Assembly: GCA_018806915.1 (NCBI GenBank)
Contig: JAGKQI010000076.1
Coordinates: forward strand, 186,001-250,000
Length of the DNA stretch: 64,000 bases
Source of the DNA: Phytophthora colocasiae
Lineage: Eukaryota > Oomycota > Peronosporomycetes > Peronosporales > Peronosporaceae
Direction: 5' to 3'
Of this stretch, positions 14,432-63,420 are shown piece by piece. The stretch's first letter is position 1. The number at the start of each line of letters is the position of its first letter. A program made the translations under genes and the position numbers. The notes under the pieces are model-generated. The model was given only the letters and a program-made list of their open reading frames with translations, was not told where the DNA came from and did no database searches.

Positions 14432-14871
14432 TTACTATCACACTAGCTCTCGGGGATATTGTCGTCAGCACGTTTGGACTGCCAATCCGCCATCACCACC
14501 CTCCCACTGATCGTACACGACTGACTATGTTGTGCTGTTTCGACTGGTTGGCGATATTTCGTAGTGTCAGGTGACACTCACTTGGTACGTAACACGTGCG
14601 AGTGTTTAGGCATGATTGAAACGCTAGTGCATATACGAGTGAGCAAGCAGAGCGGTAGGAATCCTTCCGATGGCGGAGTGGTAGGGATCACATACCTCTA
14701 TAAATTGATACAGTGATGCTGTGGGTAAGGTGGTGTGGAGGAGAAGGGTGAAACGCGTGAGAGAGCAGAGGGAGGGCAGTGGATGTGTTTTGTGTGTTTG
14801 AGAAGGTGAGGCAGCGTTTGTGGTTTTGAGGGAGTGAGCGGAACATGTGTTTTTGTTGTGGTTAGGTTAGC

Positions 14872-14943
14872 GGCCTAGTGGTCTAGTGGTATGATTCTCG
14901 CTTTGGGTGCGAGAGGTCCCGGTTTCGATCACCGGCTGGGCCC
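14872..14943 (+). tRNA. tRNA-Pro-TGG: tRNA-Pro(UGG), array copy 1
   Basis: Cloverleaf as at 1758. First complete gene after the MULE. The 776-bp unit that follows contains the mosaic segment at 15239-15305. Confidence 0.96.
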
Positions 14944-15238
14944 GTGTTTTGCACTCTCCTGCCTGCACCCAACGTCAGGTCAACCGCGCCCTTGCGGCGT
15001 GGCGGCGCTCAGCGCGTACACACCTTCTACCAGGCCAGGACTACAACTAAGGCCTTTGCTACTTCTCGTCTCTACTTTCCTCTCACTGGATGTAACAAGC
15101 AATTTGCTCACTTACTACTCGTGGTTCTTGTTGGCAAGCCACACTTTCCACACTAGGCAGCGACTGTAACCCTTATCCTTTGCTTCAAGATAGAGAAATT
15201 ACTATCACACTAGCTCTCGGGGATATTGTCGTCAGCAC

Positions 15239-15305
15239 GTTTGGACTGCCAATTTGCTACTTACGCCATCACCACCTTTCCACACTGAGGCTGCGACTGA
15301 CTATG
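15239..15305 (+). repeat. Mosaic segment inside array unit 1
   Basis: The usual GGACTGCCAATCCGCC...CACGACTGACTATG stretch is replaced by a patchwork: CCAATTTGCTACTTA and TTTCCACACTGAGGCTGCGA come from the ~169-bp subrepeat, spliced between normal pieces. It looks like template switching or conversion at short homologies (CCAAT, CGACTG). Confidence 0.75.
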
Positions 15306-15647
15306 TTGTGCTGTTTCGACTGGTTGGCGATATTTCGTAGTGTCAGGTGACACTCACTTGGTACGTAACACGTGCGAGTGTTTAGGCATGATTGAAACGC
15401 TAGTGCATATACGAGTGAGCAAGCAGAGCGGTAGGAATCCTTCCGATGGCGGAGTGGTAGGGATCACATACCTCTATAAATTGATACAGTGATGCTGTGG
15501 GTAAGGTGGTGTGGAGGAGAAGGGTGAAACGCGTGAGAGAGCAGAGGAGGGCAGTGGATGTGTTTTGTGTGTTTGAGAAGGTGAGGCAGCGTTTGTGGTT
15601 TTTGAGGGAGTGAGCGGAACATGTGTTTTTGTTGTGGTTAGGTTAGC

Positions 15648-15719
15648 GGCCTAGTGGTCTAGTGGTATGATTCTCGCTTTGGGTGCGAGAGGTCCCGGTT
15701 TCGATCACCGGCTGGGCCC
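15648..15719 (+). tRNA. tRNA-Pro-TGG: tRNA-Pro(UGG), array copy 2
   Basis: 939 bp to the next gene, one extra subrepeat. AGGCCTGTTGC replaces AGGCCTTTTGC downstream. Confidence 0.96.
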
Positions 15720-16020
15720 GTGTTTTGCACTCTCCTGCCTGCACCCAACGTCAGGTCAACCGCGCCCTTGCGGCGTGGCGGCGCTCAGCGCGTACACACC
15801 TTCTACCAGGCCAGGACTACAACTAAGGCCTGTTGCTACTTCTCGTCTCTACTTTCCCCTCTCACTGGATGTAACAAGCAATTTGCTACTTACTACTCGT
15901 GGTTCTTGTTGGCAAGCCACACTTTCCACACTAGGCTGCGACTGTAACCCTTATCCTTTGCTTCAAGATAGAGAAATTACTATCACACTAGCTCTCGGGG
16001 ATATTGTCGTCAGCACGTTT

Positions 16021-16189
16021 GCACTGGATGTACAAGCAATTTGCTACTTACTAGCGGTACAAACTTGTGGTTCTTGTTGGCAAGCCACACTTTCCACACT
16101 AGGCTGCGACTTTAACCCTTATCCTTTGCTTCAAGATAGAGAGAATTACTATCACACTAGCGCTCGGGGATATTGTCGTCAGCACGTTT
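16021..16189 (+). repeat. Extra ~169-bp subrepeat in unit 2
   Basis: A second copy of the segment from CACTGGATGTACAAGC to CAGCACGTTT. It differs from the first copy by TAGCGGTACAAA instead of TACT, CGACTTTAACC instead of CGACTGTAACC and TAGCGCTCGG instead of TAGCTCTCGG. Confidence 0.93.
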
Positions 16190-16586
16190 GGACTGCCAAT
16201 CCGCCATCACCACCCTCCCACTGATCGTACACGACTGACTATGTTGTGCTGTTTCGACTGGTTGGCGATATTTCGTAGTGTCAGGTGACACTCACTTGGT
16301 ACGTAACACGTGCGAGTGTTTAGGCATGATTGAAACGCTAGTGCATATACGAGTGAGCAAGCAGAGCGGTAGGAATCCTTCCGATGGCGGAGTGGTAGGG
16401 ATCACATACCTCTATAAATTGATACAGTGATGCTGTGGGTAAGGTGGTGTGGAGGAGAAGGGTGAAACGCGTGAGAGAGCAGAGGGAGGGCAGTGGATGT
16501 GTTTTGTGTGTTTGAGAAGGTGAGGCAGCGTTTGTGGTTTTTGAGGGAGTGAGCGGAACATGTGTTTTTGTTGTGGTTAGGTTAGC

Positions 16587-16658
16587 GGCCTAGTGGTCTA
16601 GTGGTATGATTCTCGCTTTGGGTGCGAGAGGTCCCGGTTTCGATCACCGGCTGGGCCC
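16587..16658 (+). tRNA. tRNA-Pro-TGG: tRNA-Pro(UGG), array copy 3
   Basis: 941 bp to the next gene, one extra subrepeat. Confidence 0.96.
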
Positions 16659-16960
16659 GTGTTTTGCACTCTCCTGCCTGCACCCAACGTCAGGTCAACC
16701 GCGCCCTTGCGGCGTGGCGGCGCTCAGCGCGTACACACCTTCTACCAGGCCAGGACTACAACTAAGGCCTTTTGCTACTTCTCGTCTCTACTTTCCCCTC
16801 TCACTGGATGTAACAAGCAATTTGCTACTTACTACTCGTGGTTCTTGTTGGCAAGCCACACTTTCCACACTAGGCTGCGACTGTAACCCTTATCCTTTGC
16901 TTCAAGATAGAGAGAATTACTATCACACTAGCGCTCGGGGATATTGTCGTCAGCACGTTT

Positions 16961-17130
16961 GCACTGGATGTACAAGCAATTTGCTACTTACTAGCGGTAC
17001 AAACTCGTGGTTATTGTTGGCAAGCCACACTTTCCACACTAGGCTGCGATTTTAACCCTTATCCTTTGCTTCAAGATAGAGAGAAATTACTATCACACTA
17101 GCTCTCGGGGATATTGTCGTCAGCACGTTT
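16961..17130 (+). repeat. Extra ~170-bp subrepeat in unit 3
   Basis: Carries the GGTTATTGTTGG variant (A for C) that otherwise marks the second extra copy in double-insert units, so this unit may have lost the first extra copy. Confidence 0.93.
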
Positions 17131-61932: not shown

Positions 61933-62319
61933 GTGTTTTGCACTCTCCTGCCTGCACCCAACGTCAGGTCAACCGCGCCCTTGCGGCGTGGCGGCGCTCA
62001 GCGCGTACACACCTTCTACCAGGCCAGGACTACAACTAAGGCCTTTTGCTACTTCTCGTCTCTACTTTCCCCTCTCACTGGATGTAACAAGCAATTTGCT
62101 ACTTACTACTCGTGGTTCTTGTTGGCAAGCCACACTTTCCACACTAGGCTGCGACTGTAACCCTTATCCTTTGCTTCAAGATAGAGAATTACTATCACAC
62201 TAGCTCTCGGGGATATTGTCGTCAGCACGTTTGGACTGCCAATCCGCCATCACCACCCTCCCACTGATCGTACACGACTGACTATGTTGTGCTGTTTCGA
62301 CTGGTTGGCGATATTTCGT

Positions 62320-62335
62320 AGTGTCAGGTGACACT
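62320..62335. promoter_or_regulatory. 16-bp palindrome AGTGTCAGGTGACACT (representative copy)
   Basis: Two perfect 7-bp arms around GG, present about 310 bp upstream of each tRNA in the array. It could be a dimeric protein site (it contains CAGGTG and TGACAC) or a small hairpin. Confidence 0.5.
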
Positions 62336-62349
62336 CACTTGGTACGTAA

Positions 62350-62355
62350 CACGTG
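62350..62355. promoter_or_regulatory. CACGTG motif upstream of tRNA (representative copy)
   Basis: A G-box/E-box palindrome 280 bp before the tRNA. It is altered to CCCGTG in ten units, and lost in one, all between 20.3 and 35.5 kb. CACGTG is a bHLH-type site in many eukaryotes; function here is inferred only. Confidence 0.4.
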
Positions 62356-62455
62356 CGAGTGTTTAGGCATGATTGAAACGCTAGTGCATATACGAGTGAG
62401 CAAGCAGAGCGGTAGGAATCCTTCCGATGGCGGAGTGGTAGGGATCACATACCTC

Positions 62456-62461
62456 TATAAA
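62456..62461 (+). promoter_or_regulatory. TATAAA element upstream of tRNA (representative copy)
   Basis: CTCTATAAATTG, 174 bp before the tRNA, conserved in all units read and in the inverted arm. It is too far upstream to be a normal pol III TATA for the tRNA. It could serve a separate transcript across the leader. Confidence 0.35.
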
Positions 62462-62629
62462 TTGATACAGTGATGCTGTGGGTAAGGTGGTGTGGAGGAG
62501 AAGGGTGAAACGCGTGAGAGAGCAGAGGGAGGGCAGTGGATGTGTTTTGTGTGTTTGAGAAGGTGAGGCAGCGTTTGTGGTTTTTGAGGGAGTGAGCGGA
62601 ACATGTGTTTTTGTTGTGGTTAGGTTAGC

Positions 62630-62701
62630 GGCCTAGTGGTCTAGTGGTATGATTCTCGCTTTGGGTGCGAGAGGTCCCGGTTTCGATCACCGGCTGGGCC
62701 C
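62630..62701 (+). tRNA. tRNA-Pro-TGG: tRNA-Pro(UGG), array copy 61 (last intact)
   Basis: Last full gene; the next copy, 770 bp on, is broken at the array edge. Confidence 0.96.
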
Positions 62702-62704
62702 GTG

Positions 62705-62708
62705 TTTT
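62705..62708 (+). terminator. Pol III terminator TTTT (representative copy)
   Basis: The tRNA 3' end is followed by GTG then TTTT. Four T are sufficient for RNA polymerase III in most eukaryotes, and the run is the same after every copy. Confidence 0.85.
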
Positions 62709-63399
62709 GCACTCTCCTGCCTGCACCCAACGTCAGGTCAACCGCGCCCTTGCGGCGTGGCGGCGCTCAGCGCGTACACACCTTCTACCAGGCCAGGACT
62801 ACAACTAAGGCCTTTTGCTACTTCTCGTCTCTACTTTCCCCTCTCACTGGATGTAACAAGCAATTTGCTACTTACTACTCGTGGTTCTTGTTGGCAAGCC
62901 ACACTTTCCACACTAGGCTGCGACTGTAACCCTTATCCTTTGCTTCAAGATAGAGAAATTACTATCACACTAGCTCTCGGGGATATTGTCGTCAGCACGT
63001 TTGGACTGCCAATCCGCCATCACCACCCTCCCACTGATCGTACACGACTGACTATGTTGTGCTGTTTCGACTGGTTGGCGATATTTCGTAGTGTCAGGTG
63101 ACACTCACTTGGTACGTAACACGTGCGAGTGTTTAGGCATGATTGAAACGCTAGTGCATATACGAGTGAGCAAGCAGAGCGGTAGGAATCCTTCCGATGG
63201 CGGAGTGGTAGGGATCACATACCTCTATAAATTGATACAGTGATGCTGTGGGTAAGGTGGTGTGGAGGAGAAGGGTGAAACGCGTGAGAGAGCAGAGGGA
63301 GGGCAGTGGATGTGTTTTGTGTGTTTGAGAAGGTGAGGCAGCGTTTGTGGTTTTTGAGGGAGTGAGCGGAACATGTGTTTTTGTTGTGGTTAGGTTAGC

Positions 63400-63420
63400 G
63401 GCCTAGTGGTCTAGTGGTAT
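63400..63420 (+). pseudogene. tRNA-Pro truncated at the array edge
   Basis: Only the first 21 nt (acceptor 5' strand, A box and D-loop) remain before unrelated sequence starts. The break falls just before the ATGATTCTCG that begins the second half of the D-arm. Confidence 0.95.

What the first reader, a model, noticed from the sequence alone, without database searches (positions are those of the whole stretch)
14432..63420. 49-kb tandem array of tRNA-Pro(UGG) genes in a ~770-bp unit
The sequence shows 61 head-to-tail intervals, with nearly every unit carrying an identical, intact tRNA-Pro(UGG) with pol III signals, far beyond what one isoacceptor needs. Large tandem tRNA arrays are established in Entamoeba; in an oomycete-like genome a single-tRNA satellite of this size would be unusual. 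Inference: it may serve as a chromatin barrier, replication-fork pause site, subtelomeric or nuclear-organisation element, or as a dosage reservoir. The array continues no further right but may be longer on the left.
Basis: partly seen in the sequence, partly recalled or inferred. Interest (0 to 1): 0.9.

Follow-up and report, generated by a model that had tools for sequence, protein, structure and literature searches.

The report
Private tandem array of proline tRNA genes
This oomycete keeps its genes for one proline tRNA as a long row of near-identical copies at a single place, as it does for several other tRNAs; such rows are already described in relatives, so this is a well-documented new example rather than a new kind of thing.

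Summary
Window 14432-63420 has 62 head-to-tail units (61 intervals, 52 of 766-776 bp); 58 carry a tRNA-Pro(UGG), 57 identical. The array is larger than reported: C40:186210-277834, about 92 kb with insertions. Both reported edges are transposon insertions: a MULE-like element carrying a Ty3/gypsy element on the left, a Ty3/gypsy element inside a tRNA gene on the right. All 79 genome-wide hits of a loose Pro(UGG) pattern lie in this array. Other arrays were sampled in the same genome: Pro(AGG), Pro(CGG), Lys, Gln-Gln, Trp-Ser-Thr-U6. Such arrays are published for Phytophthora infestans (Matson 2022) and Peronospora effusa (Skiadas 2024, 'SINE-like'). The evidence favours genuine tRNA genes homogenised by unequal exchange: one locus, compensatory stem changes. 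Details not found in the passages read: T-stem pair 53:61 is U:A (UGG) and A:U (AGG); nine of nine arrayed families sampled have a G/T-rich sense strand just upstream; 230 bp upstream of the tRNA show no substitution. Barrier, fork-pause and nuclear-organisation roles were not tested. New member of a known kind.

The parts
14432..63420 (+). main block of the tRNA-Pro(UGG) array in the window: 62 head-to-tail units, 58 with a tRNA called by ARAGORN
1353..2086 (+). forward array unit left of the MULE-like element, with tRNA at 1758-1829
210..1357 (-). inverted array units at the left end of the array, one intact tRNA at 646-717; array ends near 210
2087..14422 (+). MULE-like DNA transposon inserted in the array; 9-bp target duplication (2078-2086 and 14423-14431); ZSWIM1-3 RNase H-like Pfam match in its left part; the name MULE is my inference
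4090..11746 (+). Ty3/gypsy LTR retrotransposon nested in the MULE-like element; two identical 309-bp LTRs, 5-bp target duplication, RT, RNase H and integrase domains
63421..64000 (+). start of an 11.1-kb Ty3/gypsy LTR element (C40:249421-260518) inserted after nt 21 of a tRNA-Pro copy; 945-bp LTRs with 1 mismatch; 4-bp target duplication
18299..19068 (+). reference unit (770 bp): tRNA 18299-18370, then spacer; TTTT run just after the tRNA
18791..19020 (+). unit positions 493-722 of the reference unit: 230-bp block with no substitution among 82-83 copies (a few indels occur); holds TATAAA 174 bp upstream of the next tRNA
18909..19068 (+). G/T-rich sense-strand tract (160 bp, 74% G+T) immediately upstream of the tRNA
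44150..44220 (+). tRNA copy with a 1-nt deletion, still called as tRNA-Pro
27772..27787 (+). junction in the first of three units with the same internal deletion of the tRNA body (C40:213772, 216036, 228655); a differently deleted unit lies outside the window near C40:273283
23928..24397 (+). example of the 169-bp partial spacer duplication (unit positions about 216-379) that gives units of about 939 and 1108 bp

Best explanation
The array is the organism's own tRNA-Pro(UGG) gene family: real tRNA genes, each unit with its own pol III signals, amplified at one locus and kept alike by unequal crossing-over and gene conversion, as in its other arrayed tRNA families. Shown: the array, its confinement to one locus at the sensitivity of the searches, compensatory stem changes against the Pro(AGG) and Pro(CGG) families, spread of identical unit variants along the array, and young transposon insertions. 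Inferred: that the copies are transcribed and charged, and that copy number is set by recombination drift with weak selection for tRNA supply.
For: 79 of 79 loose-pattern Pro(UGG) hits and 84 of 84 upstream-block hits lie in this one array. All 17 acceptor, anticodon and T-stem pairs are kept in the three Pro isoacceptors, with three-way compensation at acceptor 6:66 and at T-stem 53:61 in standard numbering (D stem not examined). The tRNA has 2 variable sites of 72, one of them in the copy broken by the LTR element. A box and a TTTT run fit (A-box consensus recalled). Identical full units recur at a distance: 41 distinct sequences among 65 full units, the commonest 13 times, and the same tRNA deletion in three non-adjacent units. 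Like for like, 51 full core units differ at 0.48 per kb outside the tRNA and 13 full units right of the LTR element at 5.1 per kb. The same pattern is reported for single-chromosome monomeric arrays in P. infestans (PMC9584435, section 9).
Against: No expression data were available. The tRNA is only marginally less variable than the spacer: P 0.055 (2 of 62 variable sites), 0.041 (1 of 50, paralogous stretches trimmed) and 0.13 (1 of 36, full units only). The UGG and AGG tRNAs score 51-53 bits against 57-70 for the intact non-Pro tRNAs seen; Pro(CGG), which has G53:C61 in two of three copies read, scores 47-56, so the low score is a Pro trait rather than due to that pair alone. UGG and AGG lack the G53:C61 pair of the recalled B-box consensus, which could mean weak transcription. 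Three units share a deleted tRNA, so loss of the gene in one unit is tolerated and can spread. Pro(IGG) could read CCA, so the array need not be essential (recalled wobble rule).
Confidence: 0.83

Rival explanations
1. The units are SINE-like mobile elements with a tRNA-derived part that only resemble tRNA genes, as proposed for Peronospora effusa (Skiadas 2024).
For: Rapid expansion, tRNA-containing units of 284-1,070 bp and inverted copies are reported there; similar unit size and inverted units occur here. The tRNA is only marginally more conserved than the spacer.
Against: No dispersed copies seen: 78 of 78 tRNA hits (up to 3 mismatches) and 84 of 84 upstream-block hits are in one array. 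The tRNA keeps all 17 stem pairs examined across three isoacceptors with compensatory changes. That paper itself says the elements probably cannot mobilise.
Confidence: 0.08
2. The array is mainly a structural element (chromatin barrier, replication-fork pause site or nuclear-organisation site) kept for that role rather than for tRNA supply.
For: tRNA genes have such roles in yeast (recalled); Matson 2022 raises nuclear or chromatin organisation for the P. infestans arrays. A 230-bp upstream block without substitutions and a shared G/T-rich tract could be such a signal.
Against: Nothing here tests it. The tRNA stems are under structural constraint across the Pro families.
Confidence: 0.05
3. 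Copy number is an assembly artefact.
For: Published tRNA counts differ strongly between assemblies of the same oomycete.
Against: Longest exact direct self-repeat is 2,454 bp in about 92 kb, with 41 distinct sequences among 65 full units and two insertions as anchors. Read depth was not available.
Confidence: 0.04

Closest known systems
Tandem tRNA gene arrays of Phytophthora infestans (Matson et al. 2022, PMC9584435; outline, passages and sections 9 and 11 read)
   Same: Monomeric arrays of one tRNA at one locus with near-identical units; Gln CTG/TTG dimers and a Thr-Trp-Ser repeat are listed there and the same sets were found here; the tRNA-Pro(UGG) family is enlarged there
   Different: Different, 92.5-Mb genome; 770-bp unit; a U6 snRNA gene lies inside the Trp-Ser-Thr repeat here (the term 'U6 snRNA' has 0 occurrences in that paper); the parts read do not mention the 53:61 pair or a G/T tract
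'SINE-like' tRNA clusters of Peronospora effusa (Skiadas et al. 2024, PMC11540230; passages and section 9 read)
   Same: 717-bp units with an invariant tRNA and a more variable spacer, inverted blocks, subgroups of recent expansion
   Different: Arg rather than Pro in the example; read there as SINE-like; here no dispersal seen and compensatory tRNA evolution
tRNA gene arrays of Entamoeba (Tawari et al. 2007, PMC2652664; abstract and Function section read)
   Same: Long tandem arrays of tRNA genes with uniform units
   Different: Units there hold up to 5 tRNA genes, with short tandem repeats between genes in E. histolytica and E. dispar; here one tRNA per unit and no short tandem repeats reported
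Human tRNA tandem repeat at 1q23.3 (PMC4041453; search listing only)
   Same: Tandem units containing tRNA genes with copy-number variation
   Different: 7.3-kb units with a CTCF-based boundary reading; no such evidence here

Membership tests
Oomycete tandem tRNA gene arrays (Matson 2022) | many head-to-tail copies of a tRNA gene in a repeat of a few hundred bp or more | tested here: met
   61 intervals in the reported stretch, 52 of 766-776 bp
Oomycete tandem tRNA gene arrays (Matson 2022) | near-identical units; variants grouped, often near an edge | tested here: met
   51 full core units 0.48 differences per kb, 13 full units right of the LTR element 5.1 per kb, outside the tRNA
Oomycete tandem tRNA gene arrays (Matson 2022) | family confined to one chromosome location (about two-thirds of families there) | tested here: met
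   79 of 79 loose-pattern hits on C40:186682-277133
Oomycete tandem tRNA gene arrays (Matson 2022) | copy number confirmed by read depth | not testable with these tools
   no reads available
Functional eukaryotic tRNA gene | cloverleaf stems paired | tested here: met
   17 of 17 acceptor, anticodon and T-stem pairs in UGG, AGG and CGG (D stem not examined); RF00005 51.3 bits, cut-off 29
Functional eukaryotic tRNA gene | internal A box, B box and downstream T run (consensus recalled) | tested here: inconclusive
   A box and TTTT fit; B box departs at the 53:61 pair
Functional eukaryotic tRNA gene | transcription and charging | not testable with these tools
   no RNA data for this organism; a figure legend in PMC4272539 names small-RNA coverage of a Pro tRNA cluster in P. 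infestans (passages only)
tRNA-derived SINE | dispersed copies in the genome | tested here: not met
   no tRNA copy and no 54-bp upstream block (each up to 3 mismatches) outside the array in 92.5 Mb
tRNA-derived SINE | target-site duplications flanking copies | tested here: inconclusive
   units abut in phase, so there are no flanks in which to look; no formal test was made
tRNA-derived SINE | 3' tail (A-rich or LINE-like) | tested here: inconclusive
   no unit boundary can be defined in a tandem array; no A-rich tail seen by eye in the unit
Entamoeba-type tRNA array | short tandem repeats between tRNA genes (two species) | tested here: not met
   Tandem Repeats Finder (periods up to 500) reports only 169-bp partial duplications within the array

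The most novel reading that the evidence does not exclude
Arrayed oomycete tRNA genes share an upstream strand-asymmetric G/T-rich tract (9 of 9 arrayed families sampled, 68-89% G+T in the 100 bp upstream against 50 +- 6% background) that acts with, or partly replaces, the internal B box as a pol III or chromatin signal. This would fit the loss of the otherwise conserved G53:C61 pair in the Pro(UGG) and Pro(AGG) families and the substitution-free 230-bp block upstream of tRNA-Pro(UGG).
Probability: 0.25. Interest if true: 0.55.

Novelty: new member of a known kind. Interest (0 to 1): 0.33.

Why it matters
Two recent papers read oomycete tRNA arrays in opposite ways, as amplified tRNA genes and as SINE-like elements. 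This locus gives sequence evidence for the first: a private locus for Pro(UGG), and changes in the tRNA stems that compensate across the three Pro families. It also points to testable features of oomycete pol III genes, the non-canonical 53:61 pair and the G/T-rich upstream tract. In practice it shows that tRNA counts and transposon libraries of oomycetes need care.

Tried and rejected
Rejected: assembly collapse or inflation as the main explanation (longest exact direct repeat 2,454 bp). Rejected: a hidden second RNA gene in the spacer, at least among Rfam families (window 18299-19850 searched at E up to 1, only the two tRNAs found). Rejected: subtelomeric location as a shown fact (no telomere run in the first and last 10 kb of the contig; genes on both sides). 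Rejected: a general upstream TATA; of 9 spacers scanned only UGG has one near the tRNA (-174), Ser has one at -709, the other 7 none.

Led nowhere or limited. A paper search on assembly size found nothing useful. Codon supply: Pro codons in 8 ORFs, not verified as genes, were CCA 143, CCC 88, CCG 103, CCT 157; one 2,609-aa ORF gives 228 of the 491, 86 of the 143 CCA; too thin to test dosage. The 150-aa and longer ORFs within the repeat start inside the tRNA and were taken as chance; not tested further.

Caveats. The run without substitutions at unit positions 493-722 has P 0.00015 on 64 full units and 0.0014 when zone 178-375 is left out and neighbouring private sites of one copy are merged; copies in a homogenised array are not independent, and further merging would weaken it. 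Of the 62 variable sites, some come from paralogous 169-bp duplications; trimmed, 50 remain. One search compares core and right block on unlike sets; one search repeats it on full units only. Rows dropped before counts: alignments under 300 bases, the rearranged unit at C40:200872 and the LTR-broken unit. The G/T test used one spacer per family, 9 spacers; in eight of them windows at least as G/T-rich as the upstream one were 0.5-21% of windows of the same spacer, and the short Gln spacer (108 bp) offers no contrast. Pro(AGG) at 68% and Gln(UUG) at 69% are below the 70% mark that 0.1% of 6,000 background 100-mers reach. Of 5 other tRNA genes, two Ile and two Arg were 39-51% and Met 73%; U6 was not scored. 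AGG: the listing was cut at 100 places, so 98 is a lower bound and whether all AGG genes lie on C20 is not shown. One search scored 63 of 5,961 candidates, the best ones, so it is no census. Print: searches for pol III and tRNA upstream elements in oomycetes, G/T-rich tracts and U6 with tRNA repeats were (listings only); absence there is no proof.
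Full report
What is there. The window is C40:186001-250000 of a 92.5-Mb, 105-contig assembly; C40 is 395,745 bp. ARAGORN and Rfam both give 60 tRNAs, all tRNA-Pro(UGG) by ARAGORN. In the reported interval 62 units stand head to tail: 52 of 61 intervals are 766-776 bp, six are longer by one or two 169-bp partial spacer duplications (about 939 or 1108 bp), and three are short (723-725 bp) because the tRNA body is deleted. Of the 62 units, 57 carry an identical tRNA, 1 a tRNA with a 1-nt deletion, 3 lack the tRNA body and 1 is cut by an insertion.

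Extent. A genome search with up to 3 mismatches gives 78 copies (77 exact, 1 with one mismatch), all on C40:186646-277169. A looser pattern that fixes the UGG anticodon gives 79 hits, all in the same place, the extra one being the copy with the 1-nt deletion. A 54-bp block of the spacer gives 84 hits, all exact, all there too: 79 units with a tRNA, 4 with a deleted tRNA and 1 broken by the LTR element. So the array, C40:186210-277834, holds the only Pro(UGG) genes that these patterns can see; a Pro(UGG) gene with a different D arm would be missed. At the left end units are inverted.

Insertions. The reported left edge is the right end of a transposon (window 2087-14422) with a 9-bp target duplication and a ZSWIM1-3 RNase H-like Pfam match; I call it MULE-like from these two traits. 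It carries a Ty3/gypsy element (4090-11746) with two identical 309-bp LTRs and a 5-bp target duplication. The reported right edge is another Ty3/gypsy element, C40:249421-260518, with 945-bp LTRs that differ at one site and a 4-bp duplication, placed inside a tRNA gene. Near-identical LTRs mean young insertions. Beyond it the array goes on for 17 kb. Full units between the insertions differ at 0.48 per kb outside the tRNA (51 units), those right of the LTR element at 5.1 per kb (13 units). This fits continuing exchange in the core and less of it beyond the insertion; mere nearness to the edge explains it equally.

Not alone. The same genome has arrays of tRNA-Pro(AGG) on C20 (at least 98 exact anticodon-arm hits, about 390-bp units), Pro(CGG) on C22 (25 of 25 exact arm hits at 354453-377752, in two orientations), Lys(UUU) on C100, Gln(CUG)-Gln(UUG) dimers on C101 and C100, and a Trp-Ser-Thr repeat with a U6 snRNA gene on C95 and C96. 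Short stretches of each were read. The first look of the tRNA family search had 5,961 candidates, of which 63 were scored.

Known kind. Matson et al. 2022 (PMC9584435; outline, passages and sections 9 and 11 read) report 7,519 tRNA genes on the P. infestans chromosomes, about 64% in arrays of the same gene, Gln and Thr-Trp-Ser repeats, and an enlarged Pro(UGG) family. Skiadas et al. 2024 (PMC11540230; passages and section 9 read) report 33-39 clusters per Peronospora effusa isolate and name the units SINE-like. Entamoeba arrays (PMC2652664; abstract and Function section read) are an older case. The finding is a new member of a known kind.

Genes or SINE-like elements. A SINE reading predicts dispersal; none was found. 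The three Pro families differ in ways that keep structure. All 17 stem pairs examined are formed in UGG, AGG and CGG, and where one side differs the partner differs too: acceptor 6:66 is A:U, U:A, C:G, and T-stem 53:61 (52:60 in local numbering) is U:A, A:U, G:C. Within the array the tRNA has 2 variable sites in 72, one in the copy already broken by the LTR element, but this is only marginally below the spacer (P 0.04-0.13), so the case rests on the comparison between families rather than on polymorphism. I take the array to be the real tRNA-Pro(UGG) gene family, enlarged and homogenised by unequal exchange. Transcription is inferred.

What may be new. (1) G53:C61 is, from recall, nearly universal and part of the B box. 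UGG and AGG lack it; by eye on the sequences the other families sampled keep it, except one of three Pro(CGG) copies read. (2) Nine of nine arrayed tRNA families have a G/T-rich sense strand in the 100 bp upstream, 68-89% against 49.9 +- 6.1% in 6,000 random 100-mers from 15 loci of C40; two Ile and two Arg genes do not (39-51%), Met is 73%. In the UGG unit the tract begins 160 bp upstream, 14 bases after the start of a TATAAA at -174. (3) Unit positions 493-722 have no substitution in 82-83 copies. These are correlations from one genome and one spacer per family.

Function. The most likely function is tRNA supply; the size of the array is most likely an outcome of recombination. The array lies between protein genes (a PCF11-like and a Tudor-domain ORF on the left, a formin on the right) with transposon-like ORFs nearer by (a Ulp1-type peptidase ORF at C40:280925-282196), and not at a demonstrated chromosome end.

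Noticed in passing
L038:460-564 and 2497-2601, L039:1813-1917 (contigs C95, C96): A U6 snRNA gene (101.8 bits) is part of the tandem Trp-Ser-Thr tRNA repeat, so U6 too is arrayed in this genome.
   Followed up: partly
L033, L035, L036, L037, L038, upstream of the tRNAs: G/T-rich, strand-asymmetric tract upstream of all nine arrayed tRNA families sampled, whatever the amino acid.
   Followed up: partly
G000 C22:354453-377752 (start read as L035): The Pro(CGG) array is split into a + part and a - part (9 and 16 exact hits); the stretch read in the + part holds degraded copies.
   Followed up: partly
window 43378-44149 (C40:229378-230149): The unit just before the tRNA copy with a 1-nt deletion has four private substitutions in its last 24 bases; real decay or a local sequencing error.
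   Followed up: partly
L040, L041, L042, L043: Single hits of Ile(UAU) and Arg(UCU) tRNA genes, without the G/T tract and with high scores, unlike the arrayed families; origin (nuclear or organelle-derived) not tested.
   Followed up: no
L016:4090-5715 (C40:254090-255715): The LTR element at the right edge holds an 813-bp tandem duplication (99.9% identical) inside its long open frame.
   Followed up: no
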